Positions 37,047 through 58,833 of a DNA stretch of 64,000 nt are shown here, one piece after another. The notes beneath the pieces were generated by a model that ran no database searches, had not been told where the DNA came from, and worked only from the letters and a program-made list of their open reading frames with translations. Location of the stretch: contig NC_063151.1 in assembly GCF_020921035.1 (NCBI RefSeq), positions 33,300,934-33,364,933 of the forward strand, in the 5' to 3' direction. Each line of letters opens with the position of its first letter. The stretch's first letter is position 1. The position numbers were made by a program, and so were the translations under genes. Source of the stretch: Rhodamnia argentea. Lineage: Eukaryota > Streptophyta > Magnoliopsida > Myrtales > Myrtaceae.

Positions 37047-38913
37047 TTAACCGGAAGAAGCCTTTTTCTGCTGAAAAATGACAGCATAGACGGGCACAGC
37101 GGCCCCAATGCTGAAGGCAGTAAAAACAGCAAGAGACATCTTCAGCGCTTGATGACTCATCCTGTCCAAGTTGTACATATGCTTGGCATGAAGGTAGTAA
37201 GGCTCGTCATGGCCATGTGCATGCCCACCTCCCATCCTTTTCACCCCAGTTGAGTGGATTTCTCTGCTGACTGTCAAAAAAGGAAATGCACCAATCACAA
37301 GGGCTAAAAATTGCAAGTTGGTCTTGATGATGCATCCAATCATTTATACTATCTGTCGTATTCTAAACACTGAGGAAATGAGATTTCTTTTCAAGTTAAA
37401 ATATAAAGCAAGGACATAGTTAGATCGACCAAGTACACTACCCACCATGTTAATAAAGACAGCCAAATGAGATTTGTTTTAAAGTTAATGATCATTCAAG
37501 AAACTATCTTGAAACTCTGAGGCCAAAGCTCAGCTAAATGATTGCTCTGACCAACAATGGAATCATGAGTGAAAGCGGCAGTGGTCATGATTCCCCACTG
37601 GCTCACCAATCCAACCCTCTCTTGCTCCCCACCCGACACATTGCAATAGGCAAGCTCCTCGACCCGCTAAAATAAGAAACACCAGGCATGTGCAACTGAG
37701 ATTAAACCAGCTGAAAACAAAATGGAAAAGCTCTATGCATTTTTCCACATGCAAAGAAACTTCTGAATACAGTCCCATGACATCTAGTAGCAGTTAGTAG
37801 GATCAAAATGTATTCCTATGCATACATATAAGGCACTGAGCAGCCGTCAACCCTGATGAGCTTGTGATTAAACAGAACTAGGATAGAAGAAATTGAGCAT
37901 GATTCCGCATGTCACGGGTACATGCAAGCACAACCAAAAATAAGAGTAAAGTAAAAGTACTGATTTTGCAAAGTATTGTGCACTCAGGGCAAGTAAGGGC
38001 ACACAAAATGTACTGAAAAGGAGTAGCATCCCGGCAATTGAATGAACATGTCAAACAATTTACACTTGATTAGATGAGGGGGTAAGAGACCAAAGTTTGC
38101 CAGAATGTACGCATTTGTCCATCAAATAAATACACATGAACTAAAGGAAGACGTCAAATGCGTACACATAATAGAACTCCCTGCAATCTACACCCCCACT
38201 GTTAAATAAGTCAAAAACCAAAATTTGCCAAAATGTCTCTGCTCATCATCAGCAGTATGCGAACTTAGCAAAAGTAAGTAAGTTTTCAGGATCATCAATG
38301 TCATAGCTTTCGCTTTACCTAATCCAAATGTCAACAATCAATCAGAGTAAGTCCACATCCTATGCACGCTAAAGCTCAATTCCACTCTATAAAAAGTTTC
38401 CCAGGATACATCATTCCTCTTTAAAAGGCTCTAAAATCTAGGGGCGTGAGGTTTCAAAGACGCCACCATACCATCAATAATCTAAAAATAAAACTGCAAA
38501 TATCCAAAACCCTAAGTGATGATAATCCAAACTCCATATTATAGCATATCCTTACAATCTTTGAGTACGATTAAGCTCTCTTTCCTATCACAGCACAACG
38601 TTACCGCCAAAGTGAAACCATGGGAGGCCAATCGTACAGAGAGACGGACTATTTTAACAAAGATCTTCATCTCTTCCTCGTTCGAATCTCAGAACCGGTC
38701 AAAATCACTAAATCCAAGAACTTGACCATAAAAATCCTTTCACCCGATCCATTTTCAAGTGAAAAAGCACGAAAACAGGACGACAGGAAGCTTGGAGAGA
38801 GCGATTCGGAGGGTCACTGGCGAACCTGATCTCGGAAGAAGCGAGGCTGATGAAGAAGAAGAAGAAGAAGCTAGAAGCTTCGATGCAGATCTCAAGCTAT
38901 TACTCAACGCCAT
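37047..38913 (-). CDS. Small mitochondrial-type membrane protein (At1g72020-like)
   Basis: Two exons: 38913-38826 (29 codons plus one base) and 37270-37047; the intron of about 1.55 kb has GT..AG borders and the join gives Val. The 103-aa product starts MALSNSLRSASKLLASS, a Ser/Leu/Arg-rich stretch without acids that looks like a mitochondrial presequence. Then comes REIHSTGVKRMGGGHAHGHD (about residues 32-51), a His/Gly-rich patch, and DEPYYLHAKHMYNLDRMSHQ. One membrane span follows at about 74-96 (LAVFTAFSIGAAVPVYAVIF) and a basic tail QQKKASSG. The wording and position match the conserved plant protein At1g72020, labelled in databases as 'TonB-dependent heme receptor A', a name the sequence does not support. 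A small subunit of a respiratory complex is a plausible alternative. Reaction unknown. It is divergent from FANCM. Confidence 0.85.
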
Positions 38914-39724
38914 AATGACTCTTGCAAACGATCAATCACCACCAGTCTCAGACAGGTCTCTGTCCTCTTCGCTTCTTCTCGCTCTCTCTCTCCCTATGTT
39001 CTGCGACGGCTTTTGCAGAGAATTGAGGCGAAAATGCGATACATTTCCGGTTGATCTGCGGATCCGGAAAGCCCGTGATAGATGGGTCGGGCTCGCAGGC
39101 TACTTCATGGGCTTAAATTGCGTTTTATGGTCTAGATTTCTGCCTAAAATATATAAGTCAGATATGTTCGTATCTTATTCGGTTTATTATTTGGTATTTA
39201 AGATGTATGGATATAAGTGAACCTGAAAATGTACAAATGAAGACCATAGGAACCGCCCAATTTATTGTTTAGTTCTTCAAAAGCGAACACAGTTTTCTAA
39301 GCGTCATCGATGTGAAGATCGGAGAGAGTGAGAGGCTGAACAAAGAAGTAATTGAATTTCAATTAGAAAAGAGGACGATTGTTTAACGATGAGAATCAAG
39401 TTAATTGGTGCAATCTTGCCATCCAACTGGTGAGCAGGAGTTTTGCTGTTGTCTTTATGATCTGCTTTTTGTAATTAGGAGATAAAAGATGCTTAAGCTT
39501 GAAGAAGCTGTACATCTTTGTATGAAAATGGCTCACGAGGGATAATAATATGGGCCAGGCTATGACTTCGAGCAGCCCATGTCCCATCTCGTCTTTCTCC
39601 TTCCCTCTGAATTCAATCGTCTTTTCAAGTTTTTGCCGCCACACACGCACTCACTTCCTTCCTCTCTCTCTCTCTCTCTCTCTCTCTCCCCGTGCCTTCT
39701 GGGTCTGACTGACGGTCCATTGTC
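38914..39724. promoter_or_regulatory. Shared promoter interval between divergent genes
   Basis: These 811 bases separate the ATG of the minus-strand membrane-protein gene (38913) from the ATG of FANCM (39725). Both leaders and both promoters must lie here or overlap it. A CT tract at 39662-39688 sits in the probable FANCM leader. No TATA box is evident, which fits housekeeping-type bidirectional promoters. Confidence 0.5.
39662..39688 (+). repeat. (CT)n microsatellite in the FANCM leader
   Basis: About 13 CT dinucleotides, ending 36 bases before the FANCM ATG. Confidence 0.85.
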
Positions 39725-42700
39725 ATGACTTCAAACGCTCCTCATGTAATCGTCGACGACGAGGAAGACGACGTGCGTCCCTTCTTTTTCTTCTCCTCTC
39801 TTTGATGTTCTGAACTCTTTAACTGCAATGTTGCATTCGTTCTCCTTGTTCAGCATCCAACTGATTGACCTTCGTCTCTCTCTCTCTCTAGGATTTCGAC
39901 TGGGATGCGGCTGTCAGAGAAATCGACGCGGCTTGCGAGAGCTCAAGATCGTCCGCTTCTTCGGACCCATTTAAAACCCCCCACGTCGCGTTCCCCGCTT
40001 TGGATAATGCGGAGGTTCCTCGCTTGTTTAGCAAGAAAAGCAATGGGGTTTCTCGACAATCGACGCTCGATAACTTCATAGGGAGATCCTTGACGAGAAC
40101 CGACCCGGACAATTTGGCGATTCGGGTTGGGGAGCAAATCCGGGTCGACTGTAATGATGCAGCGAGCTGCGTCGAAATTGATCCCGAGGCAGCCAAAACT
40201 TGGATATACCCAGGTTTCGATTGGGTTAAATCAAAGACTTCTTTGTTCTGTCCGTTTGGTTTCCTTGGTGTCGGGGCAGGGTTATTGATCATCAACATTA
40301 TGTTGTTTCTTGAAACAACATCTTCCATTTTATTTTTATATCATTCTTTATGGTTGGAGCTCGCTACTCGGCAACTGTCTTGGCGCTGCCTTCCCGGGCA
40401 CATTTCCTTAGTATTTGCCGGGCATTATTTGTTGTTAGTTTATTTTTTGTCGGAATATTTGTTGTTAGTTGAAGTAATGTAAAATATCAAGACTTGCTGG
40501 ATGAGTGATGTGGTAGAATGTTGAATTGATAGGGTGTGCTTTTGCCGATAAGTTTAAAATGGAAATTCTCTTTTTGCCTTTTATTTTTTCTTCAATGTGT
40601 TTGTTGTTGTTCCTGTGTTAGACAGCAGTTTAAGTGTACGAATTGCGCTGTTTTTTGAATCCAACTATAGTCTGTGAATTTGACTCTTTGCTTCCTTGAA
40701 GGCATAAAGTCCTTTGGTGTGGAACTTGGCTTCGATTTATGCGGGTCATAATTTGTCAGAAGCAAAGTTATCAAATTCAGGTTTTGTTTGTAGCCCTGAA
40801 ATCCAAACTATTTTTTTTCTTTGGTTGCAGTGAATGTGCCACTTCGCGATTATCAGTTTTCTATAGCAAAGACTGCACTTTTTTCGAATACTTTGGTCGC
40901 ATTGCCGACTGGACTTGGGAAGACACTTATTGCTGCAGTCGTGATGTTTAACTATTTCAGATGGTTCCCCGAAGGTAATACGATCGTATTACTGTTCTTC
41001 AACACCACTGTCTGGTTATTGATCCATATATTTTGCAAGTTTTAAGTTCATGTGCTCATGAAGAGGATGAGGGTGGGGGCAAGAAGGTTTTAGGTTCACC
41101 ATGCCTTTCCTGGGGCAAATGACTGATTAGCAACCACTTTCAAGAAGTAAACATTTTTAGTTTCTGCTCGGAAAATTTTCATGCTTGGTCATATTGCTCG
41201 ATAACATTGTCTGCCAGAATTACATTTTAATTTGTCCCTCACATTAAACCAGTCTAATTGGTTGAACTGGCTGGTCAGGTTTTAAAACATTGCTTCCACG
41301 TTACCAGCTGTATATGGGCATCATTAACCATTTCTTGCAATTCTTTTTTCCATGGTAGGGAAAATAGTCTTCACTGCTCCCTCTCGTCCACTTGTGATAC
41401 AACAAATAGAAGCATGCCATAATATTGTCGGAATACCACAGGTTAGGTTCTGCGTTTACTCTCTGTAAGACTCACTGTTACTGACTTGTCAAAGTCCTAT
41501 TCATATGAAAAATATTGCAGGAATGGACGATCGACATGACTGGCCAGATGAGCCCTGATAAAAGAGTTCACTTTTGGAAGAGTAAACGAGTATTTTTTGT
41601 TACTCCTCAAGTGCTAGAGAAAGATATTCAATCTGGTGTGTCTCTAGAAGCTGCTATCACATACCATGTTTGGGATTAATGCTGATGAGGGAGATATTTA
41701 TAGTTTGTCAAGCTGACTCAATGACCTATCAGGATTCTATGTATTTGAGTCCTTAGTAGAATTGGGTAAATTTTGCACGAATTTTCAAAGTGAGATCATA
41801 TCTAGCTAAGTATCATTCTAGGTTGAAACTTTGGATCCCATTCGTTCCCCTTGCTTTCATCTCTCAGTGTCGGTGTTATGTTTTTCATGATTTGAGGAAT
41901 GTACATTGTAGTACTTAAAAATAAGTTTGTGAAAGAAATGGTAATATAGATGCAAAATTCTTAAGACGTCCACCTTAAGCCACATAAGTTGAAGCCAATA
42001 AGGAATCCATCCTGTCTCGAAGCTCTTACGTCGAGTGGAAGTGGAACAGGGTTATTGTTTGAAATTGGTTTTGAAATGAGTCTTTGTTAAAGCTACTTTT
42101 CGAGTCTGCCAAATGAGAATTAATGGATCTCTAACATTGAAGTGTACCCTCTTAAGTTAGACAAAATAAGTAAGTTCTGTTACAGGTTTAGATTACTCAT
42201 ACTTTTGAATGAATGAAGTAGAAGGAATCAATGGTTGGTTGAAGTAAAGCCCGAGATTATAAGTTGATCCTTATAAGCTGGAGGGAATAAATTAATAGCA
42301 GGTATATTGTATGCTTGTACAAGCTTTGCAATTTAGCCATCTCATTCACTTTCTATTTTACATTTGAAGTGGCAAAGTCCATAAATACCATTTTAATGGA
42401 TGTTTGATCTTGGAATTTAAACTGTGGAAGGCAATTCAGAGGACATGTATAATTACCTAGATAATCTTCTCTCTCTCTCTCTCTCTGTGTTTATCATTTG
42501 CATGTAATAGCTTCACTTTTGGTAAGATAATATTTATATTGCTTTTTGGAGTTATGGTGTTGGAGTTTCTGTTTGTTGGCATGACCATCTAGCATTTCAC
42601 ATATGATAGTTGTCTGCACTAAACTTAAGTACTCTTGAAGTGCACGAAGCATATGCCATTTCAATGCCTAGCGTGAAAATGATTGTTCCTTGTGCATTTT

Positions 42701-45700
42701 AGTTGAGCCTACATAAACTTTTGGGAACTTTTGTGGCTGCACATGTTAGTAGCATAATATTTTGATTATTAGTTCTTATGTTGTTAGGAAAATCATTCGT
42801 AGGTTGCTAGATTTGGCTCTTCAGTTTCTGTTGTTGAAATTTATCTTGCTAATAAGTTTGAGTTTTTGCAGGCACATGTTTGGTGAAGTATCTGGTCTGC
42901 CTGGTGATTGACGAGGCCCATCGGGCCTCAGGAAACTATTCGTATTGTGTTGTCGTTAGAGAGGTTAGTCTTCCTTTCTTCTAATTCTTGGTGAAATTTT
43001 TGGTATTATCTTTTCCAGGAGATAGAGTACATGTATTTTGTTCAAGAGTGCATTTAGGTTCATCTTTTGTGAAAGGATAGAAGGCTTATATTCGAAATTT
43101 CCAGTTGATAGCCCGACCTGTGCAGCTGAGGATATTAGCTTTAACAGCGACACCAGGATGTAAGTATTGTGACTACTGTTTACATATGTTTTAGAATGTA
43201 ACAATAGGTTACTCATATTCTTACATAAGGCAATTGTCAGCAAAGCACCAGACCATTCAGCATGTAATTGACAATTTGATCATATCAACCCTTGAATATC
43301 GCAACGAAAGCGACCCTGATGTCAGCCCATATGTTCATGACAGAAAACTAGAGTTGATTGAGGTATATAATTTACTGTCTGTCATTTTGTTTATTCTTGA
43401 ACATATATGTGCTGACTTATACTTTCTTTAATGCCACCAGGTAGCTATGGGCAAAGAAGCTATCGAGATAAATGATTTGCTTTTGAAGGTCATCCGCATC
43501 TATGCAGCTCGTCTTAATGCAATGGGCATACTGCTGAATCGGGATTATCAAGCTGTATGATTCGATCTACTTTACATGTCCATAGTCCATAGACACCTTA
43601 TGAGCTAACACAAATTCAAATTTCGTATATTGCTCCATTTTTGTGTTTCCAATGTTTGACTTTGTAATCTGACCAAAAAAAATGTTTCCCTTTATACCCG
43701 TTGAACTTTATTGGGGGCACAGATTGTCAACATGCTGGCACACTATCAAAATCCCATGACGAAAATCCCGGAAGTTTGTGATGTCCCCTACCTTTTGTGA
43801 TGCTCAACTGCCCTTTCTACTTTTAAAAATGGATAAATTACGAGATCTTTGTCACAGAGTGCAGTGGATATATGATTGATAACATAACTAAGATCTGTAT
43901 AACAATGTTGTCCGAGATCTAAACTTTTTGTTTTTGTTTTAAGATATTTGCTATGCAGAACACTACGTAGTAGGATTTTAGTTTCATGTTTTTCTTGCTG
44001 TATTTTTATTCTATATCTTATTTGATTTAATTACTAAGATGGATTTTACACGATCATTATTCTCTAGAATTTGTTTGGAGAAGATATGAAACATACCTTA
44101 TTGAGGGAGAGATGGCCTAAGGCATCTTGTAAACTCCTTTATGCTACTCTTAGATTGCCCATAAGTTATAGATTGTTGGAGTATTATCCCACATCGCTTG
44201 ACAACGGGTCCCGAATGCTCTTTACATTCATGTGGTCTCCCTCCACCTCAGCTTAAGCTTTTGGGTTGGAATTTCTAATATGGTATTAGAGCCGATATTA
44301 TGCCTTTGCGAATGTGCGTGGTCAAAACTCCACGTGAATGTGCATAGTCAAAATTCCATATGCCACTCGTAATCCGGCTTGTATGTGAGAGGAGGTGTTG
44401 AAGTATTATTTTACATCGCTTGACACGGGTTCTAAATGCTCTTTATATTCATGTGGTCTCCCTCCACCTATCGGCTTAAGCTTTTGAGTTGGACTTTCTA
44501 ACATAGAAATGTAACTTAAAACTTCCGTTCTGTGGAATGGCGATAACTAGTGGGGCGTTTGTGTAAGTGAAAAAGTATGTTTGACCTTGCATCATCCTTA
44601 GTGCTTGTTATGGAGATATTGAACGGCTGAACATGATGAATGAGTATTGTCTTGTGAATGATGATAGCTATTATGCTGGAAACAGAGGCTTCCTGACCAT
44701 TATCATTTTGGATTTGAATGGTGCCCCTTCTGCTCTCGGATAAGATATTATTGATTAGGTTCTGATTGCTTGCTTTAAGAAGTTGCGCATGATAGACAAG
44801 TTTTTCAGGAAAGTATGCCTCGGTAAGTGCTTAAAAAATGTACATTTCCTTAAAAAATTTCATCGCAATTTTTTTCCCCTTCTGTGTGGGTTACATTTGA
44901 TTTTCTCCTGTGTGTTGCCCGGCTTAACTTTTGCTTTTCCTTAGTTACTGTCATTCTTCATTATTCCCCGAATGCACATGACAATAATCTTTTAAACTTT
45001 CGCAGTTGAGTCCATCAGACTTGCTTACTTCAAGGGATAAATTTCGTCAAGCACCTCCGCCTGAACTTTCGCAAGTGAAATATGGAGAGGTTGAAAGGTT
45101 TTTTGGAGCCCTTATCACTCTTTATCACATTCGCAAATTGCTCTCAAGCCATGGCATAAGGCCAGCCTACGAGATGCTTGAAGAAAAGTTGCACCAGGGG
45201 TATGGCAAGGTTCATGTGTGTGATTTATTTATGTGTTGCGAAAAAGATGAAAATTCTTTGCTCTTGGAGGCATGCTGCCTTAGTTTGTTATTCTCTAGAG
45301 ACGTAGAGCTTTTTGGATGTAGATGACAGTTACATATACCTGCAATGCCCTGAGTGTTCAAAAGTATTTTTAAGAATGGTACGAGATTGTACACCCTTCT
45401 CTCCCACATTTAGCCAATTATAGAATAGGATTCTAAAAAATGTGGCTCTTGAGTGGATATGACCCCTTAGTTAAATTTGTTTTTTGTTCTCTACTTGACA
45501 CCCCATAAAAACCCTCCTATGCCCCACCAGTGGTCAAAAACCACTTATTGCTTCCCGAGTTTTGAACACGTGTGGTCACCCGTTGTATGGCAAGTTTGGT
45601 TTCACTGCACCAAACTTCTATTGGTTGACAACCACTTATGCCCCACAAGTGGTAGAAAACCACTTGTTGCTTACCGAGTTTTGAACACAGGTGGTGACCT

Positions 45701-48700
45701 GTGGTATGATAAGCTTGGTGCAGTGGCACCAGGCTTTTATTGGTCATGAAATTTTCTTTTCTCTTATTAACCTTACCTGCATTTTCTATGTACATGACAA
45801 ATTAAGGAAGAATAAACATAGCAGCCTTCATATGAGGATGGGTTTGCAGGTGGTGAAATCATAGTGAGACCCTCTGATTTGCTTCTGCAGTAAACATTTT
45901 GTCCACTTTAATTGATCATCTGAGAGGAATATCTATTCGAGATAACAGTATATATCTCCTTGTATCTTGCTTTTATTCGCTTACACGGGTTATGATCCTT
46001 TTTTCACTTACTCTAATGACAGAATTGTACAAGTTTTAAGCAAATTACAACCATCATCTCACAGTTGCCATTTTTACCATGGTATAGTGTCAAATGTTGA
46101 GATAAAATAGAACATATTTCTGAACTCTATTTAAATTCTGCAGGTCTTTTGCGAGCTTGATGAGTAGAAATGAAGATATTAATAAAGCGAAACTCTTAAT
46201 GCAGCAAAGCTTATCTCATGGCGCACCTAATCCAAAGATATCAAAAATGTTAGAAGTGTTGATTGACCACTTCAGTACGTGAACACGGTATTCTTTAAAT
46301 TTGCAAGTACTTGAATTATACCACCTATATACTTTTGCCTTTTGCCAGTGATGTGCTAGATTATGTTATTGGTTGATCCTTTTTGATGTTTAGTTTTCAG
46401 TTTTTGAATCTGTATAGAGTGAATGTTGATAAACTACAGATTTGCGATAGTCATGCAATCGGAAAGTTTTAGAGAATTAAATATTACTATTGGGGTTTTT
46501 CCTTTTCTTTGCTCCTTCTTGTAACTGCTGTTTGTTACTCTTAAGTTGTCTTTATTGCTATTTACATCTCCAATTTTTCAATTACAATTTAGACCAAATC
46601 TCCTAATTATATTACTCTTAAGTTACCATTGGTTATGCACTCTGAAATTTCATTTAGATGTGTAGTGCCGCCGTCTCATCATACCATGAAATAGGGCATT
46701 GGCAGGAACATATGCCAAGAAGAAATCATACAAAGTTTAACAGGATTGTTCGCTAATATCAATTTGAGTTCCGATTGTCTTTGCTGATACCACAAGCGAC
46801 ACGGAGAAAATAATCTATGCAAATTAGTGAATGGAAACTAGAAGCATTTCTAATTAGCAGCTAGTTGTCTAGCTTCTACCATCATCTATAATTCACTATA
46901 AAATGTTAATTATTAATTAATCGGTTGATGATAGAAGAGGTATTATTTGACAAATGTGATGATCAAACTACATAACAGTTACAGAGACCGATGCTATTGC
47001 TGTAGCTTATCTGCAAAGGTCTTTGAGCAGATGGCACAGGCATCTTGTTAGCTTACAACAGACCTTATAACCTAGGAAATGTTCTTTTGCGATATCTTTC
47101 ATGTATCCAATTATGGATCTTACAGTCTGGGATTCAATATGATGCCTATTGTTGTCTGCAGAAAAAAATGATCCTCAACAGTCAAGGGTTATCATTTTCT
47201 CAAACTTTAGGGGAAGTGTCAGGTAAAATGTCTATGGGCGTCTTGTTGCTTGTTGCAGTATCTCTTGAAATTACTTCATCTCATTTTTTAAGGGGACTTC
47301 TTTTGCTGTATCTCTTAATTATACTTGATTCAGGGACATTATGGATGCATTGTCAAACATTGGGGATATAGTCAAAGCAGCACAATTTGTTGGTCAAAGT
47401 TCAGGTTTATTTTTCCCTAAGAATATGTTACTTTGCCACCATGAGATTTCTAGGAATTATGTCTTATCCATGTCTTTTTGCTTAGCACTCACTTTGTCAT
47501 TTTTAAATTATGAGGTAACTTTTCTAAGAAGTAGCTGTCGGATGAACACGAGTATTAAGATTTACGATCGAGTTCTCTGCATAATACATTGAGAAATCGC
47601 TTAACAAGGGAAATAACGATGAATGGATATGGATGTGTTGCAATGCAAATGCAAAAAGCGTAGCTTGTCGAGGTAGAGATATCAAGCAGTCAGTCAGCAA
47701 CATTTCTGGATATATGCTACTAGCACTGCTGCAAGAAAGCCATCACTTTTTGCCGATTTCAAATCATCACGGCCAACTTTGAGTACTATTGCATGCGCTC
47801 TCTGAAGTGTTCTTCCGTCGAAGATACGTGGGTTCTCCATCGAAAAAGCTTTGAGGCACTCCAATTACTTGATGGATAATTAGAGTCATCTGGAGAATAA
47901 CCTGGACTGAAAAGATGGCCTCTCCCTCCTTTCTATCTATTGACTGCTTGATAAGGCCATTTTCTCTTTACATTATTTGAGAAGTAGGATTTATAATTGG
48001 GTAGTGACGATTTGCTCGTTAGGAGCTATATATGTGTACTGCAGTAACAATCTGGGTTACAGGTTTCATAACTGTCACAAAATCAAAAGAATTCATTTAT
48101 GATATGATTAAAGGGGAGGAAAGGATCAAATATTCTTTTTGAAATGCAATTGTTGGAAATTTGTGGTTTTCATTTGAATTTCCAGTCCTGGCAAGTAGCA
48201 AATTTAGATTTTGATTTAGTATCTTGATAATACTCAATCATGAACATGGGAAGAAATGAAAGAAGGCAAACTTTTGTCATTGATTTTCACCGTTGAACAG
48301 CATGGAATTTGGACTTGTTGACTTCTAATTACTGTGACTTCTAATTACTGCATTCATGCTTGGTTTCTGTTTCGGGATTTCCTCTCCATTAGTGTGGTAA
48401 TTATAAGCTGACAGTTCAAATCTTAGAGATGGGAAATCTTATGATGGATGGAATTTTCTCACGTCTACCCTTTTTTCCATGGAAGATTGCTTTTCTAATT
48501 TTAATGTGCATTAGTCTGATATATGAATTGTGGGCAATGTCAAACAATTTGTTGATCGGCATTCTTTTACAGGAAAATCACTAAAGGGACAGTCACAAAA
48601 GGTTCAGCAGGCTGTTCTGGAGGTAATGAGGTGATCATATGCTGCTTCTCATGACCCTTGAGTTATTCTGACTTTGCTTCCCTGCAGAAATTTCGAGCTG

Positions 48701-51700
48701 GTGGATACAATGTCATTGTGGCCACATCCATTGGTGAAGAGGGTCTTGATATCATGGAAGTTGATCTAGTAATATGTTTTGATGCTAATGTCTCACCTCT
48801 ACGTATGGTGCAGCGCATGGGAAGAACCGGAAGGAAACATGATGGACGTGTGGATATCCTTTGACATTTTTTTATACAATTGACCAGGTTGAGTATTGTT
48901 CTGGCCTTAAAAAATGATTAAGTTGCTTGTTACTTTCATGTAAGGGGTATATGGAAGCCAATCCGTTATTTATTCTTTATTCCAATGTTTTCTTTCTCCT
49001 CTCTCTCTCTTTGCTTTTCTTGAGGTCCTATATCATCATTGTTTGTTGACTACTTAAAGCTTGCCTCAAATTGTCCTTGACTAAGTTTACTAGTGTTAGC
49101 TTGTGAGGGGTCAGAGCTGAAGGGTTACAGACGAAAGCAAGCTAACAGCAAGGCAGTAAGTAAGCACATGCGGAATGGAGGGATTGCAAGTTTTAATTTC
49201 CATTTGAGTCCCCGAATGGTGAGATATTATTGAGTTGGAACTACATAATTTTTCCATGTCACAGTTATTCTATAACTTGGAAATATCACTTCTTGTAGAT
49301 TCCACATATTTTCAAACCAGATGTCCAGTTTGTTGAGCTATCAATTGAAAAGTTTGTTCCTCGTGGAAAGAAAGTAAAAGATGATGATGTTGTTGAGATG
49401 CCAATGTGGAAGAAGAATTTAACTGTCACGGAAGCTGATATCGTTGCCAAGTATTTCAACAATTCTGGAAAGAGCTGGAAACCATCTCTTATTGCTTTTC
49501 CTCACTTCCAGACTTTTCCATGTAGAGTGCACATAGTCATGCATTCGTGCAGGACAGGTATGATGATTGATGCGATGCAACATTTGCAAGGAGTAGTGTT
49601 TTCTAGAGATAAAGAAGGTCTTCCTGTTGAGGTTTGTTCCTGTCCCATCAATCCATTGTTGTACATTATTTTCTCTGCCAGTGTTACTTATTCATGCATC
49701 TGATTCAGGAGAAAGAATTCTTAGTTGAACAACATGGATCTAAGCCGTTAGAACAACACAACAACTGTTGTCAAGGTATTGTAGTTTGAGAGCCATCTAC
49801 AATTTAAGTAATTTCTGGATGAGATGTTCTTTTGAGTTGCCTACTTGAAGGTTTTTCGTTCTGGAATGAAATAAATATAGCCCAACAAAACTATACAACC
49901 CACCGTACGATCCATTGAAGCAGTCCATTTAGTTTTCAGCAATGGTTGTTTGTCATCGTGCGCGTGTGATCTTTCTAGTTTTCCAAAACTATCTGAGGGA
50001 ACAAACTGTCAAGAGGGGTAGAACGTATGAGGGTTCATAAACACGGAAGACATCATGAACTTCTATCAGAATCTGGAGAACTGTCATTTGACGTTATGGG
50101 CTGAGTTGCTGTTGTTAATAGCATCTAATATTTGTGCATACACTTATTCTAATAACAAGAACCTCATTAAATAGTTTGTACCATGTTCATGGACAAAAAT
50201 AGCTACAGCAGGTTGCTGCATATTGACTCATTTTGTCTTTCCTAAATAGATGCACACCGCAGGTTGTATGTATGAGTCAGTGTGTGTGAACATGTATATT
50301 CTAGATGCACACAGTAGGTTGTATCTGAGTCTCTGTGTGTACGCATGTACTCATTGATTTTCTTCTGAGAACTTTGTTGATTTAATGAGTATTGTATTGG
50401 TCATTTATAGCATTCATGTTTTCATCTTATGTGCTCTTAGATTAGTTTATGGAGTGAGTATAGTGTTTTCCAGAAATTTTATTGACTAAATTAGGAGTTC
50501 GTATGATAGCCATATTTCTGTTTTTCCTCATCTCTTATGTACATGCATAATTTTCCACTTTCAGATAATTACATGCTTGGAAAATGCTTTTGTGTTGATT
50601 CTTTTGACAGATTTGCTGAACTTTGATGATTGTCCTGATATATATGAGCAAAGGAGTATGTCAGACACACCTGTGCAGACCTCAGAAAATGCAGATCGCA
50701 ATTGCTTGTCTACTATAGCTAGCAAAAGTTCTCCAGTGCACTCTTACCTCTTTAGTGCAGATTTCGTGTCTGTTGACAATCTTGGAAATGTCCTTATTTT
50801 GTCTGTTCCTTCACTTCCTTCCCCAAAAGTCACACAAAGTGATGACATATACCTGAAATGCCCCAAGAAAGATTCTGGCCGTTTCTTAGCTGCAGCTCAA
50901 AGATCAGAAGAAGTACGCATGCCATTTGGGGATTCTGTGCAACGAGCTTCTGCTCAGACAAGATGTCTGAAGAGTGAAGCTCGGGCTGTATCTACAGTTT
51001 TCGACTTTGAAGCTCAGCAAAATGAACCAACAGTTATGGACATGAAGAACACTGAGATAGAAAACGTGATTGGAGTATTGCCAGATGGAGGAGATGGTAC
51101 CAATGGAACACCAGATGCCTTAAAAGTCAAAGAGCCATTTCCTCTAGCCAGTGCATGTAACGATGATGAGGAAGATGCAGAACTCAGTCCCCGACTTACG
51201 AACTACATGGAAAGTGGAGTTGTTCCTGAATCTCCTATTAATGGTATCACGTGTCCTAACATCTCTCTTTATCCATTTGTTTTCCTTAAAATCTGTCAAC
51301 TAGAAATTTCCTCCGACCAACATTAATGTTGTGGGCAATATGGCTTTGCAGGAGAATCAAATGGTAAAGACAAAAGTGCCTTTGTCATCCCAGATCTTGT
51401 TTTGCCTCCCATTTGCAGCAACCACCTCTTTATGTCGTCAAGTCAGGGGAAAAAGAGGGAACTTATAAAAGAATTTGATTCATGCAGAGGAATTGTTTCT
51501 GGTTCCCCTACATATAACAGAATACAAACTCCCTTAGCAAACATTAAGGATGGTTCCAACAAAAGTAAATGTGGCCATGCTTCTCCAGACAATCAGATGA
51601 CACCGGAAAATGATATCACCAGCGGCCATAGTAAGAATTGGTGTCTGACTCCCAATAATAATTCAAACAGTGTGAAAGGTAGAAAGAAGCTCAGAAGGCT

Positions 51701-54273
51701 GCGAAGAGTTGGAGACTGTGTACGTAGGCGGGGCCTGAATCACAAAGATAATGACATTGTCCCCATTGTGGAATCTGATCGATCTTTTCCTGGGGCCAGT
51801 ACATTTCAAAATCAAAATAACTATAACCAGGGTAACAGACCTTTTAAGCATTTTTGTTACATTAGTCCAGTTTCTCAATTCTGGGATCCTAACTTTCATT
51901 CTATCATTTACCGTGCTATAAGTCATTGTGCTTCAACGTATGTACCATTAATGGATCTACATGCATATTTACCAACGTGGTGTTCATTTTAACTTTAGGT
52001 GAAAAGAAGACAACCAACAATGGCAGAGCCTACATTGAAGAGGAAGCTGAGTGAGTATTTACTCTAATTATCCAAGCTTGCAGCAAACAACTTCTTTTGA
52101 TGTGTTGCTATTGTAACAGGATTGCTCTGGTTGATATTTGATATAACATGGCAGTAAATTATAGACAGAGAAAGTCTTTAAGGAGAGGAGCTGGACTAAG
52201 AAATGATTGCATATTGGCCATTCTTCTTTTTATCTGAGTTGGTAATTTTCTAGATTTCGAGATTTGAATTTTGGATACACGAAAGGAAGATGATAGATTT
52301 TTCCCTTTTGTGGAAGCCAATCTGCTCATATATAGTGTATACTTTATATGTCATACTAAACTTTTCTTTTTGTGCCTAATGTCTCCTTAAACTTGTTGAC
52401 AACTGAAAAGTACCTATCATGGCCATCAGTAGGAACGTCGTGCAACATAAAGATTACAGGATGAGAACTTGCAGCAACCAAACTAGTTAAGACTTAAGAT
52501 CCATTTGACAATTGAAGTAATCAAAATAATAAACACCCCACATTACAAAAGTTCTCCAGACAAATTGGAAATCTTGAGAAAAAATAGGTGATCTATTTGA
52601 TCTTTCCTAGTGCATGGGCTTACTTTACAGGAGTTCATTTTGCTGTCTGTTTTACATACATAAATGGGGAGGCTATTGCATAGAGCTTAACACTAAGGTT
52701 CAATTACCTTATTGTATTACATGTTGACTGATTTGCTTGCTTGCTATATGGTTCTGCTTAGGGTATCTTCTGGAGCTGAAGCATCTGAGGATGAAGAAGA
52801 TGACCTTGACGGAGATACATATGAGGATAGCTTCATAGATGACGGGACAAATCCGACAGCAGCAAGTACTCAAGATATTACTTGTACGGTTGATATGATG
52901 GCAGTGTACAGGTCATCCTTTCCTCTCTGTCTTTCTCTCTTCTCCCTCTTCCTGTGTCTGTCTGTGCATGCCCACAGCATCTATAAGAGGTGATATGCAG
53001 AAAGCGGATGCATGGCAATCTAGCAAACTTTAGGCTTGCAATTGCCATATTAAAAGAAGGCAATGGAATTTCGCTGTGCTGTTATGTGGAGAACTTGGAC
53101 ATTTGTTTTTCAGTCTACTCCGTCAGCAAATCAATAGTAGAATTTGGAAAAGAAGTAATATTTGCTTAGAAAGGTTTCTGTCCCTCAGACCTTTCATGCA
53201 GAAAACTGGGAACTGGAAAATCTTTATGCATCTCGCGAAGCAGCTCAGTTGAAAAACATAACATCAGTTAATCACTTGCACTTAAATGCAGGGTGTTTTC
53301 AAGGCTAACAAAGCTCAACCTTTTGTATTCATCAAGTGCGATAATTTCAAATACAAAGCAACTAGCTGAAGTTTTAGAAATCGACAGAAAAAAAGAAAAA
53401 TGCTGAGTGTTTGCTCTTCTATACAGCTGAGGACAGCAGCAAATAGAGATGGATATAGAAATATTTAAATGGTTTAAGTTCAAAGTGTGGTCAGCCGACT
53501 CAGGACTGACCTGATGTATGAGAGAGCCCTGTACATGTTTAGTTTCTGATATTGGTTTATTCTATGTTCCAAGTTCCATTTTGTATGTATTGTGCTAGCC
53601 AAGGATAAGTAAATTAATCAAATGTAATTTCCAATTCTTCATCGCATAGCCAGGTAGTTCCCTGAATTGTGGGGCGGCTACTGTTCTTTCTTATATTGAT
53701 AGACTGTCATGGATCCATTACTATTTTCTTCTTGAAAGCAGGCGTTCTTTGCTAAGTCAGTCACCAAATGGATGGCGGATGAGTGAAAGCACAAGTTCTT
53801 CAGGAAAGAATCTGCACTCTCTATATGCACCCGGCAGCAGACTGAAAAATCAGTCTGAAGGCGGAAGTGCTGAAAGCTTGTCGGAAGGCCATGAGAGAAT
53901 CCCGAAAAGGAGGCCTTCTATGGCAAGTATTTCCACAACAGATGGGGGGAGTGATGTGGAAAGATTGAAGAGGAAATCGAGGTTCCATGATCCGGATTCT
54001 GTTCCCGCAATCAACCTGGAGAGAGAATTCCTTTCTCAGGGAGATTCTGGAAATGAAGAACCGGTCCATCAGAACCAGGCTAATGGAGTTCCTGCCGATT
54101 TCGACCTCTTCTCTGATGATCACTTCTACGAGGGTGTCGATCTCGACGCCCTAGAAGCTCAAGCCACATTGCTTCTCCAACGCAGTTCTGAGTGCTCGAA
54201 GGAGAAGAAAGAGACGATTCCAAAGCCAAGTGTTGACCATGCCGGCTCTCCAACCTTCGATCTCGGAATATGA
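39725..54273 (+). CDS. FANCM: FANCM DNA helicase/translocase
   Basis: Nuclear SF2 (XPF/Hef/Mph1-type) translocase that unwinds recombination intermediates; in Arabidopsis it limits meiotic crossovers. I model 23 exons: 39725-39772, 39892-40213, 40831-40974, 41359-41441, 41521-41635, 42872-42963, 43105-43159, 43241-43362, 43441-43554, 45006-45199, 46144-46274, 47162-47222, 47334-47404, 48573-48622, 48688-48853, 49091-49218, 49299-49631, 49709-49775, 50611-51243, 51352-51831, 51999-52050, 52762-52911, 53742-54273. The sum is 4143 bases, exactly 1381 codons (1380 aa; Arabidopsis about 1344). Motifs: Walker A LPTGLGKT (148-155), DEAH (251-254), LTATPG (281-286), motif [10 protein letters not shown] (576-583). 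The C-terminal half is polar, with an acidic YEDSFIDDG block. No ERCC4 nuclease domain, as in plant FANCM. All introns are GT-AG except intron 15, which is AT-AC. Confidence 0.95.
44174..44503 (+). mobile_element. TRIM (miniature LTR retrotransposon) in FANCM intron 9
   Basis: Two direct repeats of about 107-108 bases form LTRs: 44174-44280 (TGTTGGAGTATTATCCC... to ...TTTCTAATA) and 44396-44503 (TGTTGAAGTATTATTTT... to ...TTTCTAACA). Right after the first LTR is TGGTATTAGAGCC, a primer-binding site for initiator methionine tRNA (canonical TGGTATCAGAGC). Just before the second LTR is the purine tract GAGAGGAGG. The 115-base interior has no coding capacity. Flanks TAGAT and TAGAA may be a decayed 5-bp target duplication. 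Size and layout are those of a TRIM. Confidence 0.88.
45521..45757 (+). repeat. Tandem duplication, 2 x about 119 bp, in FANCM intron 10
   Basis: The segment beginning GCCCCACCAGTGGTCAAAAA at 45521 recurs at 45640 as GCCCCACAAGTGGTAGAAAA, and the similarity runs through 'ccgagttttgaacac', 'gtggt' and 'cttttattggt'. The copies have diverged, so the duplication is older than the one in the invertase intron. Confidence 0.85.
48854..49090 (+). other. U12-type AT-AC intron (FANCM intron 15)
   Basis: The intron starts ATATCCTTT at 48854, the exact consensus of a minor-spliceosome AT-AC 5' site. It has GTCCTTGAC at 49073-49081, close to the U12 branch consensus TTCCTTRAC, and ends in AC at 49090, with 10 bases between the branch adenosine (49080) and the last intron base. 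Splicing joins GTG G to TA GTG TTA and gives [16 protein letters not shown], the conserved helicase sequence. Reading through instead gives DGRVDIL and a stop. No GT donor or AG acceptor in this interval restores the family sequence. Confidence 0.93.
50247..50352 (+). repeat. Tandem duplication, 2 x about 55 bp, in FANCM intron 18
   Basis: TAGATGCACACCGCAGGTTG at 50247 recurs at 50302 as TAGATGCACACAGTAGGTTG, each followed by a GTGTGTG-rich tail. Confidence 0.75.
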
Positions 54274-55523
54274 AACTACACCAGAAGATTACAAAGAACC
54301 TACATGTATGGCAACATTTTTCATGCGAAACATCATACGGGTCCGCAGCTGCATTGCACAATAGTGAGTCAGATGGCTTCTACAAGATTTATACAGAGGC
54401 GCCTCTCCAGCATCAGGTTGTCCCAGCCAGTCTTTCTCAGGTTGTATTTGTGTATGAGAAGTCTTAATGTAAATTATCTTAGAAACACACTTGGTACATC
54501 CCGATGTTAAAGACTAGAAATAAAAAAACACAGCATTCGGTAAATGTAATGGTATGAGCAAGGACGCACCATGCACTCTGCTTCTGTAATTTAAGCAAAA
54601 TCTAATTCTAGACAGTGATCCTCTGCTCTGAACAATCTTTGAAAACGTCTTTGTGACCGCTAACCTGTCAAATAAAACCAAATTTAATTGTGTCTTGTTT
54701 AAAAACATACTGAATATGATATCATAAAGGCGTAGGGGACAGCAGAAGAGTCGCACGTGGGGTCCTCAAAATCAAACGAGTGGACGACACGAGTCTCCCG
54801 TTCCCTGTCATTTACAGCACTTAATTACTGCAACCACCCATGATTTATTACATGTTTAATGTGGGCCCCACCCAAATCTCATTAACCCCAATTCCCTCTC
54901 TGTGGCTAAGCCTCGGATTTGTCTCTGACTCTGCCCCCAATTTTTCTCTGTACCAAAGAGGCCAAAAAAAAAAAAAAAGAATTAAAGTAAAAGAAATTCC
55001 GCCCGTTTATTTTTCTCTTTTTGTTTAATTTAATTCCCACTGTATTCCCCTTAATCCCGGTCTTGTGGGACAAACCAAACGACACAGAACCCCAGACCAT
55101 CCTAAAAAAAAAACCCTAATATTTCCCTCCACTATCGTTCGCATTCTCGCCCAACAAAAATTTATGAACATAAATTCTCGATTCTGTCGTCTGTCGTCTG
55201 TCGTCTGTCTCCTTCCCCTCTGGAAAAACCCTAGCAAACCTTTGGGCAGCACCAAATTTCGAACGAACTGTGAAGCCTCTTTTTGCTCCTCTGGATACTC
55301 AGCACTGTCTATAGGCGTTATCAGCAGAGAGACCTTGAATATCTCCCGCCTCTTTTGTCTCTCTCTTCTTTTTCTCTCTTGTTCAAGAAAGAAGGGCAAT
55401 TTCTTTCTTTCCTCTCTAGTTCAAGTTCAAGAAAGAAAGGGAATTGTCTTCTCTCCTCTCTCTCTCTCTCTCAAGTTCAAGTGGGAAAAAAGGAAGGAAA
55501 TCACGGTGAGATGCGAAGACGTG
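54274..55523 (+). other. FANCM 3' UTR, spacer and dNK leader
   Basis: A poly(A)-signal-like AAATAAA lies at about 54518-54524. A gene-poor AT-rich stretch follows. The part from about 55180 to 55500 is pyrimidine-rich (ctctctctctctct near 55455-55471) and is probably the dNK 5' leader. An ATG at 55164 is in frame with the kinase and the frame is open between them, so a 120-residue extension is possible but looks like untranslated sequence. Confidence 0.45.
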
Positions 55524-55573
55524 ATGCAGAAGCTGTTAAGCCGAAGCCCTTCTGGCCCTATCCTCCTCTGTAG
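55511..55573 (+). CDS. Overlapping upstream ORF of the dNK gene (20 codons)
   Basis: An ATG 13 bases before the dNK start, in another frame, opens a 20-codon ORF ending TAG at 55573, inside the kinase coding sequence. It could lower kinase translation unless scanning ribosomes skip it. Translation is not shown by the sequence. Confidence 0.35.
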   Translation: MRRRDAEAVKPKPFWPYPPL

Positions 55574-58500
55574 TGCCGCCAAACCTCCCATTACTCTAGG
55601 GTTTAAGTTCAAGACCAGCACCGCCACAAGAAGCTTCTCTTTCCATAAAAGCCCTCCCTTTTCTGGGTTTAACGCACCCATACACAGAATGCCTTCGCCG
55701 CCCGGTGCGCTCCAAGCCGCCAATGGCTCCGGCGGGTTGGCTCTAGCGGCTGCTCTGTCCAAGAAGCCCTCTGGCTATGTCTCTTCTCGCTTCTACTCCA
55801 CTAGCTGCAGAATCTGTCGATGCTCCATTCAGAATACAGCGCCTTCGCGGGCCTGGGTCGTGTTCAAGGAAGGCCGGGGCGGGTCGTGGCCGAAGTGGGT
55901 CCACACGGGCTCGGAAGGGTCGTTCGCGGCTTCCGCCGTCGAGGGTTCGAAGAATCTTGAGAAGGGTCTCAGCGAGAAGGATATACTGGTATCGGATGAG
56001 AAGGAGGCGAGAGTGCAGAGGAGACAGAAAGAGCCAGCTAGCGTCGCTGGTAACTTGGATTTGCTGACGATTCCGGGTGTCGGGCCAAGGAATCTGAGGA
56101 AGTTGGTGGACAAGGGGATTGCTGGAGTCGCTGAGCTCAAGCAGTTGTACAGGGATAAGGTGCTAAAACAGTATTTTCATGTCTAGGCTTTCTCGTTTAG
56201 CCTTTAAATGTGAAGTTTAGAGGGGCAGAGTGAGATGCTCCCATGTGTGTTCTTTCAGGGCTTCGTTTATGTTCATGGTTCCTACATTTTTTTTAGCTTG
56301 ACGTGCTGTGTTGCTCCTTTACTTTCTCTGAGTTATTGCGTGCCAGCATTTTATAGTTCGTGTTTTATCCAAGTCTGCTTATTTTTATGTGAGCCTGAAC
56401 TTTGCCATGGGGCAGTGATGTTCCCGAATATTTAGGTCTACTTTTGAAGATTCGACAAAGTCTCTAACTTCAGTTGTTTATTGATTGTGGTGCATAAGAA
56501 TCCTTTATGATGACCATAGGTACTTTCCTGGGGTTTACGACTGTAATGCTCACATCTTGGTTTACATAGTTGGAGTGCAGCCTTTGTTTGCCCCTATGTA
56601 ATTCTCTGCTGATATAAGGACTGTGTTAACTTGTAGTTCTTTGGGAAGTCTAGTGAGAAGATGGTGGAGTATTTACAGGGTTCTGTTGGAATCATTCACA
56701 AAAACCATGCTGAGAGTATCACTACCTACATTAAAGAAAGTGTGGAGGAAGACTTGAAGGATTCTGATATGGATAATAGGCCAGCAATGAAGAAACGCCT
56801 CACTTTCTGTGTTGAGGGGAACATCAGCGTTGGGAAGACAACATTCCTTCAAAGGATTGCTAATGAAACGCTGGAGCTGCGTGACCTTGTTGAGGTGGTT
56901 CCAGAACCTATCAATAAGTGGCAGGATGTTGGGCCAGATCACTTCAATGTATTGGATGCTTTTTATGCAGATCCAGAAAGATATGCCTATACTTTCCAGA
57001 ATTATGTGTTTGTTACAAGGTTTATGCAGGAGAGAGAATCATCTGACGGGGTCAAGCCACTCAGACTGATGGAGAGAAGTGTCTTCAGTGACAGAATGGT
57101 TTGTATTTTGTCAAACTTTAGTCAGTCATTCTGTTGTCGGCTGTTGCCTGCAAACTGTTGGTTTATTTTCTGTCACAAGTCGAAAAGTTGATAGACAGGC
57201 ACCAACGGGTGCAATGGATGTAAAAGATTAACATAAAGAAAGGATATAGAATATTCAGAGAAGTCTGTCTCTCAATAAGCTAGCCACAGGTATAGGAGTT
57301 CCAATACTTTTAAAATCCCCTCTATTTTCAGATCACCCGATAATGGGATATACATAGTTTTTCTGTTTGTAAAGCTCTGTGTTTCTCTCTATATCTATGG
57401 TACGTCAAGAATCTCTTGATCTGAAAAAAATGATGCTAAGGATGTTGGGAAGGTTGACAGCTCAATCAATCCCATGATCAATTGCAAGCAAAAACAATGA
57501 TGAAGTTGGATTCTTAGTCTGTTCCTTTTCTTGCGTAGGTACTAGTTACTATGAAGACCAACTTGTTTTGGAATGCTGATGCATTAACTAATCTTTTTGC
57601 TGACTACAGGTCTTTGTAAGAGCTGTCCATGAAGCAAAGTGGATGAGTGAGATGGAGATCAGCATCTATGACTCATGGTTTGATCCAGTTGTCTCATGCT
57701 TGCCCGGTCTCATCCCTGATGGTTTTATATATCTGAGGGCAAGCCCCGATACTTGTCATAAGAGAATGAAGCTTCGGAAGAGAGCAGAGGAAGGTGGAGT
57801 CTCCCTGGAATACCTACGAGACTTGCACGATAAGCATGAGAGCTGGCTTTTCCCATTTGAAAGTGGGAAGCATGGAGTATTGTCAGTGAGTAAACCCCCT
57901 TTTCATGTTGACAACTCGTTACATCCAGATATAAGGGACCGTGTTTTCTATTTGGAGGGTGATCATATGCACTCCAGTATTCAAAAGGTATGAGCAATGC
58001 TCTATTTTTCTCAACTTTACCAGAATTGTGTAAGCTTTTTCTGCTAACGGTTCTCTTCATTTCGAGCAGGTTCCTGCTTTGGTCCTTGATTGTGAGCCCA
58101 ACATTGATTTCAGCAGGGACATTGAAGCCAAGAGGCAGTAAGATCACTTTCCCTTAATCAATATTTTATGATGTATGCCACATATTGAAGGTTTACGGTG
58201 GTGCTTGTGGTGATTTTCCCCTACTGCTTCGTGTACGCCACATGTTGAGGCTGAGTCATACTGAACATCTCATGCAAGTTTCTTTCTACGTTCATGAACG
58301 AGATCCTTATGTTATCCCTTGCAGTTGCTTGTTTCATGCATTGGGAGGCGGGAAATTTCGCTGTTCTTTTTGTTCAGTGTGTTCTTTTCCCTGTGCCGTT
58401 CTTCCCCTTCAAGTTTTTTCTTTTAAATTAGGAATACTTGTTTGCTATGTTGTTTTTTCACGTCAATCTTCATTTTAACTTGGTGTATCTTACCTTCATT

Positions 58501-58833
58501 TGTTCCTTTTCATGGCTTTCAGCATGAAAAAGTGGAACCATTCTGTTGTATCAAACTTTTCTTCATTGAGTGTGCTCGTTATGCCCTAAAGATAGATGTT
58601 AATTATATTTATCTAATGTCAGGTATGCATCCCAAGTGGCACAGTTCTTTGAGTTCGTGAAGAAGAAGAAAGACGACGAGCCAACCAGAGTGGGAGAAGG
58701 GCCACAAGGTGGGCAGCAGCAGGTTTTGCTGCCCCACAGTGGTGGATTGTGGATGCCTGGTGGCAAGCCCTTCCCCGAGTCGGCCCTTCGATCTTTGGAC
58801 TTTAGACGAGCCATGTCCTTTATGTCTGGCTAG
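55524..58833 (+). CDS. Deoxyribonucleoside kinase with N-terminal HhH extension
   Basis: Phosphorylates deoxyribonucleosides with ATP in the dNTP salvage pathway, probably in organelles. Exons: 55524-56159, 56637-57098, 57610-57987, 58070-58137 and 58623-58833; all GT..AG, frame intact, 584 aa (Arabidopsis dNK, At1g72040, is about 580). The first 60-80 residues are Ser/Lys/Pro-rich like a transit peptide. Residues about 177-210 read LDLLTIPGVGPRNLRKLVDK, a helix-hairpin-helix motif. The kinase domain starts near 265: P-loop GNISVGKT (273-280), PEPINKWQDVG, LMERSVFSDR (ERS motif), IYLRASPDTCHKRM and the arginine-rich lid MKLRKRAEEGGVSLEYL. The end has LLPHSGGLWMPGG. The start was chosen by length match to the family. 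Lies just after FANCM on the same strand. Very sure of family. Confidence 0.94.

What the first reader, a model, noticed from the sequence alone, without database searches (positions are those of the whole stretch)
48854..49090. U12-type AT-AC intron inside helicase motif VI region of FANCM
The 5' site ATATCCTTT, the branch site GTCCTTGAC with 10 bases to the end, and the terminal AC all fit the minor spliceosome. Only this splice restores DGRVVVLACEG after the motif QRMGRTGR. Gene finders limited to GT-AG would end the protein at DGRVDIL or mis-splice it. If minor-spliceosome activity changes, FANCM, an anti-crossover factor, would be truncated directly after the helicase core, so this intron could act as a control point for recombination.
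Basis: partly seen in the sequence, partly recalled or inferred. Interest (0 to 1): 0.75.

Follow-up and report, generated by a model that had tools for sequence, protein, structure and literature searches.

The report
Minor-spliceosome AT-AC intron in plant FANCM

Summary
The intron is real. Window 48854-49090 (237 nt, phase 1) starts ATATCCTTT, carries TCCTTGAC with the presumed branch A 10 nt before the end, and ends AC. It is the only AT-AC intron among 22 (the other 21 are GT-AG) in a complete 1380-aa FANCM model. The public Rhodamnia argentea isoform X2 equals that model minus 66 residues and already contains DGRVVVLACEG. Of 25 in-frame open splice pairs at the site, only this one gives that string. 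Of 156 listed plant FANCM models, 115 carry the junction and 41 do not; 18 of the 41 (14 eudicot genera) read GRVDIL, the AT donor translated as coding sequence. Eighteen models (6 shared) show a leucine that requires C or T as last intron base. The genome encodes U11, U12, U6atac and a homologue of CENATAC, the human AT-AN splicing factor. It is a new example of a known kind, already implicit in public annotation. No RNA reads of this species were seen.

The parts
39725..54273 (+). FANCM gene, start to stop codon, 23 coding exons, 1380 aa
   Evidence: Exon model by script, exon 7 start corrected to 43105; equals the Rhodamnia argentea public isoform X2 except for 66 residues absent from that isoform
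48688..48853 (+). Exon 15, carries helicase motif [10 protein letters not shown] and ends after the first base of a codon
48854..49090 (+). Intron 15, U12-type AT-AC, 237 nt, phase 1
48854..48862 (+). 5' splice site ATATCCTTT
   Evidence: for ATATCCTT; pairs with the genome's U11 and U6atac
49074..49081 (+). Branch-site motif TCCTTGAC, presumed branch A at 49080
   Evidence: duplex scan with U12 not discriminating
49089..49090 (+). Terminal AC
49091..49218 (+). Exon 16, begins TA|GTG TTA GCT and completes GRVVVLACEG
48848..49093 (+). Rival in-frame GT-AG pair (would give DGLLACEG)
   Evidence: donor score similar to the gene's ordinary donors

Best explanation
Intron 15 of the FANCM gene of Rhodamnia argentea is an ordinary, most likely constitutive, U12-type AT-AC intron removed by the minor spliceosome (U11 and then U6atac at the 5' site, U12 at the branch site). 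Its removal joins motif VI to the following conserved GRVVVLA stretch of the second helicase domain. The intron is old: read-through traces in public gene models show the same donor in 14 eudicot genera from Ranunculales to rosids and asterids. Shown here: the sequence, the frame, the conserved junction, and the presence in this genome of U11, U12, U6atac and a CENATAC homologue. Inferred: splicing in vivo in this species, the branch point, and dependence on CENATAC/DROL1-type factors.
For: Three U12 signals in register at an exon end that needs an intron; only 1 of 25 in-frame open pairs gives DGRVVVLACEG; public model of the same species has it; 115 of 156 listed plant models carry the junction type; 18 models read the donor as VDIL and 18 (6 shared) show L before VLA, which means C or T as last intron base; 6 of 6 plant-like proteins on short 'lgn' contigs, probably cDNA, have the junction; human FANCM and archaeal 1wp9 align through the stretch without a gap; U12, U6atac, U11 and CENATAC family found in the genome; U11 pairing strongest of the gene's 22 donors, U6atac second.
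Against: No RNA reads of this species were examined. The composite motif occurs by chance in 13 of 200 simulations. U11 pairing is only slightly better than that of intron 22 (-6.6 against -6.3), intron 22 beats it for U6atac (-8.9 against -6.5), and the donor ranks only 231st of 14536 12-mers of the gene for the sum. The U12 duplex scan did not single out the branch motif. U4atac was not found, though the tool says this does not show absence. Two Myrtaceae models use a GT-AG splice instead. The 156 rows are not independent: some are isoforms or close species.
Confidence: 0.95

Rival explanations
1. The intron is really a U2-type GT-AG intron, 48848-49093, giving DGLLACEG, spliced by the major spliceosome.
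For: In frame and open; the Psidium guajava and Eucalyptus grandis models contain DGLLACEG; its donor scores 6.01, close to the leave-one-out median (6.13) of the gene's 21 GT donors.
Against: Removes three residues (RVV) from a stretch whose length is kept in human FANCM and archaeal 1wp9 and in 115 of 156 listed plant models; the public models of Rhodamnia itself, Corymbia and Syzygium oleosum have the AT-AC product; it leaves the conserved donor traces unexplained.
Confidence: 0.03
2. Both splices occur: the AT-AC product is the main one and the GT-AG pair is a fallback in Myrtaceae when minor splicing is slow, giving an in-frame protein lacking RVV.
For: Depletion of CENATAC in human cells activates alternative major splice sites as well as retention (PMC8280824, passages); a usable in-frame GT-AG pair is present and matches two Myrtaceae models.
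Against: Those two models may be pure predictions; no reads seen. Other plant models use a variety of other joins, which looks like gene-finder noise.
Confidence: 0.15
3. The intron is a regulated control point: its retention tunes FANCM and so crossover number.
For: Human AT-AN minor introns show relatively high basal retention and depend on CENATAC (PMC8280824, abstract and passages); DROL1 is needed for AT-AC introns in Arabidopsis (stated in PMC11039992, passages); FANCM limits class II crossovers in plants (PMC9233680, passages); loss of the human splicing factor ZRSR2 resembles Fanconi deficiency (PMC12475092, passages), though that is not shown to act through FANCM.
Against: No regulation shown. 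A retained intron adds three residues and a stop, which predicts decay or loss of function rather than a tuned product (inference). A survey favours mostly neutral minor-intron evolution (PMC10639083, passages).
Confidence: 0.06

Closest known systems
U12-type AT-AC (A-type) minor introns of plants and animals
   Same: ATATCCTTT donor, TCCTTRAC branch motif 10 nt from the end, AC terminus, in a genome with U11, U12, U6atac and a CENATAC homologue
   Different: No difference in kind found; only the host gene. I found no paper naming it in FANCM, but supplementary lists could not be read
Plant FANCM (Arabidopsis AT1G35530; RefSeq-style Rhodamnia argentea FANCM isoform X2)
   Same: Same gene: X2 equals the model minus 66 residues
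   Different: X2 lacks the 66 residues encoded by exons 4 and 5
Human FANCM (PDB 9el5) and archaeal Hef-like helicase (PDB 1wp9)
   Same: Helicase core aligns through motif VI and the following strand without a gap
   Different: Intron content of those genes was not examined

Membership tests
U12-type intron | 5' splice site RTATCCTTT | tested here: met
   ATATCCTTT at 48854
U12-type intron | Branch motif TCCTTRAC about 10-15 nt before the 3' end | tested here: met
   TCCTTGAC at 49074-49081, presumed branch A 10 nt from the end; distance rule as in PMC2426677 (passages)
U12-type intron | AT-AC (or GT-AG) termini that give the conserved protein | tested here: met
   1 of 25 in-frame pairs gives DGRVVVLACEG; public model agrees
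U12-type intron | Pairing of the branch site with U12 snRNA | tested here: inconclusive
   Duplex scan did not rank the motif first
U12-type intron | Minor-spliceosome RNAs in the genome | tested here: met
   U12, U6atac, U11 above cut-off; U4atac not found, control silent too
U12-type intron | Removed by the minor spliceosome in vivo | not testable with these tools
   No RNA or mutant data
FANCM | DEAH helicase with both helicase domains and motif [10 protein letters not shown] | tested here: met
   Pfam PF00270, PF00271 and PF04851 in P0001 as listed and in two orthologues scanned; human FANCM 9el5 best PDB match of the Arabidopsis orthologue
FANCM | MHF-binding region after the helicase core | tested here: inconclusive
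   A conserved block follows (34 invariant of 126 columns in 7 chosen plants), but no PDB chain matched at E up to 10

The most novel reading that the evidence does not exclude
FANCM carries an AT-AC intron kept since early eudicots (possibly since early land plants), so that plant crossover suppression depends on AT-AC-specific factors (CENATAC/DROL1 type); changes in their activity would shift FANCM between full-length, retained and, in Myrtaceae, an in-frame three-residue-deleted form, and thereby alter recombination.
Probability: 0.06. Interest if true: 0.65.

Novelty: new member of a known kind. Interest (0 to 1): 0.27.

Why it matters
If FANCM splicing depends on the AT-AC branch of the minor spliceosome, then existing minor-spliceosome mutants can be checked at once for FANCM intron retention and for crossover change, linking two fields. 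In practice it flags a recurrent annotation error: 41 of 156 listed plant FANCM models are aberrant at this junction, which matters to anyone planning fancm mutants for breeding from those models.

Tried and rejected
A first branch pattern had the wrong spacing and found nothing; searches replaced it. The U12 duplex scan did not single out the branch motif: negative. The U11/U6atac scan puts the AT donor first and second among 22 donors but only 231st of 14536 12-mers. The MHF-binding region could not be confirmed against solved structures. Intron 22 (GTCATCCTTT) pairs well with U6atac, but the motif is one base out of register and I treat it as U2-type without further test. Rfam at gathering thresholds found nothing in the window. 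Conservation of the arginine after motif VI: invariant in the 23 proteins that I chose, but K, Q, N or H stands there in other listed proteins (for example P0014, P0020, P0154, P0173), so I rest on the kept length, not on that residue.

Paper searches: FANCM with U12-type intron, minor spliceosome, U12/intron/splicing/plant, AT-AC, and intron retention/Arabidopsis, AT1G35530, and general terms. No listing named a minor intron in plant FANCM. Passages checked: PMC4735120 holds both terms only in its reference list, PMC12475092 concerns human ZRSR2, PMC7042379 lists FANCM in a table, PMC4132730 gave no match to my terms. The other papers were seen as listings only. Supplementary tables could not be read, so I do not claim that the intron is unpublished.

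Full report
The feature. I read the region directly and built a complete FANCM model by script: 23 coding exons from 39725 to 54273 which, after the start of exon 7 is corrected to 43105, encode 1380 residues with one terminal stop. Twenty-one of 22 introns are GT-AG; intron 15, 48854-49090, is AT-AC, 237 nt, phase 1. It starts ATATCCTTT, carries TCCTTGAC at 49074-49081 and ends AC, the presumed branch A being 10 nt from the end.

Source. The best database match, Rhodamnia argentea FANCM isoform X2, is 100% identical over the searched region. It equals my model exactly apart from 66 residues of exons 4-5 missing in that isoform, and its contig length equals that of the genome contig holding the window (36340250). 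That public model already has DGRVVVLACEG. In the window's genome a 98-residue query from exons 15-16 gave six matches: the two FANCM exons and four weaker ones of 35-44% identity, so FANCM looks single-copy.

Chance and alternatives. The composite motif turned up at least once in 13 of 200 simulations of 64 kb and a second time in this window, so motif presence alone is weak. Of the donor/acceptor pairs tried (GT-AG, GC-AG, AT-AC, AT-AG), 25 keep the frame open; only 48854/49090 gives DGRVVVLACEG. Near rivals are AT-AG 48854/49093 (one V fewer) and GT-AG 48848/49093 (DGLLACEG). The latter string is in the Psidium guajava and Eucalyptus grandis models, and a Melastoma model (DGPCEG) matches a further GT-AG pair, 48848/49099. 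The rival donor scores like the gene's ordinary donors. Human FANCM (9el5) and archaeal 1wp9 align through the stretch without a gap, which fits the AT-AC product and not the shorter ones. The arginine removed by the GT-AG rival is invariant in the 23 proteins that I chose for alignment but is K, Q, N or H in other listed proteins, so the argument rests on length.

Conservation seen through annotation errors. No plant genome other than this one could be searched, so I used protein models. Three searches gave 156 plant or plant-like rows: the best 120 listed of 3084, 8 of the 99 (the other 91 are animal, fungal or unnamed and were left out), and the 28 new ones among the best 120 listed of 593. 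Some rows are isoforms or close species, so they are not independent. Of the 156, 115 carry the GRV(V)VLA-type junction and 41 do not: 18 read GRVDIL, 2 read GLLACEG and 21 are otherwise aberrant, one of which lacks motif VI. GRVDIL is GTG GAT ATC CTT, the donor read as coding sequence. By the listed names the 18 come from 14 genera: Salix (five models), Malus, Escallonia, Paulownia, Vitis, Forsythia, Tarenaya, Rhamnella, Linum, Orobanche, Dillenia, Cinchona, Papaver and Kingdonia. Residues after DIL differ, as expected of an intron interior. At the other end 18 models, 6 of them also in the first group, have leucine directly before VLA. Because the split codon is G|TN, leucine there means that the last intron base is C or T, not G. 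These traces put the donor in Ranunculales, rosids and asterids (placement of the genera recalled). Two of three liverwort models, one Sphagnum and one Taxus model are also aberrant here, which hints at greater age but does not show AT-AC. Two mosses, two lycophytes and a fern have the normal junction, which says nothing about intron type.

Transcripts. Six plant-like proteins come from short contigs tagged 'lgn' (3.5-5.2 kb) with uninterrupted frames of 998-1551 residues; all six have the junction.

Machinery. The genome holds U12 (87.3 bits, one place), U6atac (three places), U11 (one place) and a CCDC84/CENATAC homologue (three matches on one contig). U4atac was not found, but the tool's control says that this does not show absence; the DROL1 family did not complete. 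In a duplex calculation the AT donor is the strongest of the gene's 22 with U11 (-6.6, next -6.3) and second with U6atac (-6.5, intron 22 -8.9), but only 231st of 14536 12-mers across the gene for the sum. The U12 branch scan was not discriminating.

Consequence. Retention adds three residues and a stop, a 592-residue product ending DGRVDIL. The alignment of the Arabidopsis orthologue to 1wp9 runs past this point, so the cut is inside the second helicase domain rather than after it. Nonsense-mediated decay is expected (inference: seven introns lie downstream). Loss of an MHF-binding part is plausible from recall, but that part could not be confirmed here.

Known background. CENATAC is needed for AT-AN minor introns in human cells; these show relatively high basal retention and can switch to alternative major sites (PMC8280824, abstract and passages). 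DROL1 is needed for AT-AC introns in Arabidopsis, as stated in PMC11039992 (passages); I did not see the original paper. FANCM limits class II crossovers in plants (PMC9233680, passages). Loss of the human factor ZRSR2 resembles Fanconi deficiency (PMC12475092, passages). A survey of over 3000 genomes favours largely neutral minor-intron evolution (PMC10639083, abstract and passages), while an older paper argues for down-regulation by slow splicing (PMC2426677, passages).

Verdict. It is a new example of a well-known kind, already implicit in the public protein model of this species. The control-point idea is testable but unsupported.

Noticed in passing
41359-41635: The public isoform X2 lacks exactly the 66 residues encoded by exons 4 and 5, i.e. 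an in-frame double exon skip inside the first helicase domain.
   Followed up: partly
49090-49093: An AT-AG end three bases downstream (TAG) is also in frame and would drop one valine (GRVVLACEG), a possible tandem acceptor.
   Followed up: no
52912-53741: Intron 22 (GT-AG) starts GTCATCCTTT, a U12-like motif one base out of register, and pairs better with U6atac than the AT-AC donor does.
   Followed up: partly
38546-40104: A second composite AT donor, TCCTTGAC and AC end; it spans the region upstream of FANCM into its exon 2 and looks like chance.
   Followed up: no
L012-L014 (genome contig C7, 29611527-29614241): CENATAC/CCDC84 homologue in three exon-like matches in the same genome; a minor intron in plant CENATAC is said to be autoregulatory (PMC8280824, passages), not examined here.
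   Followed up: no
55500-58830: The next + strand gene looks like a deoxynucleoside kinase (impression from reading the sequence; not tested).
   Followed up: no
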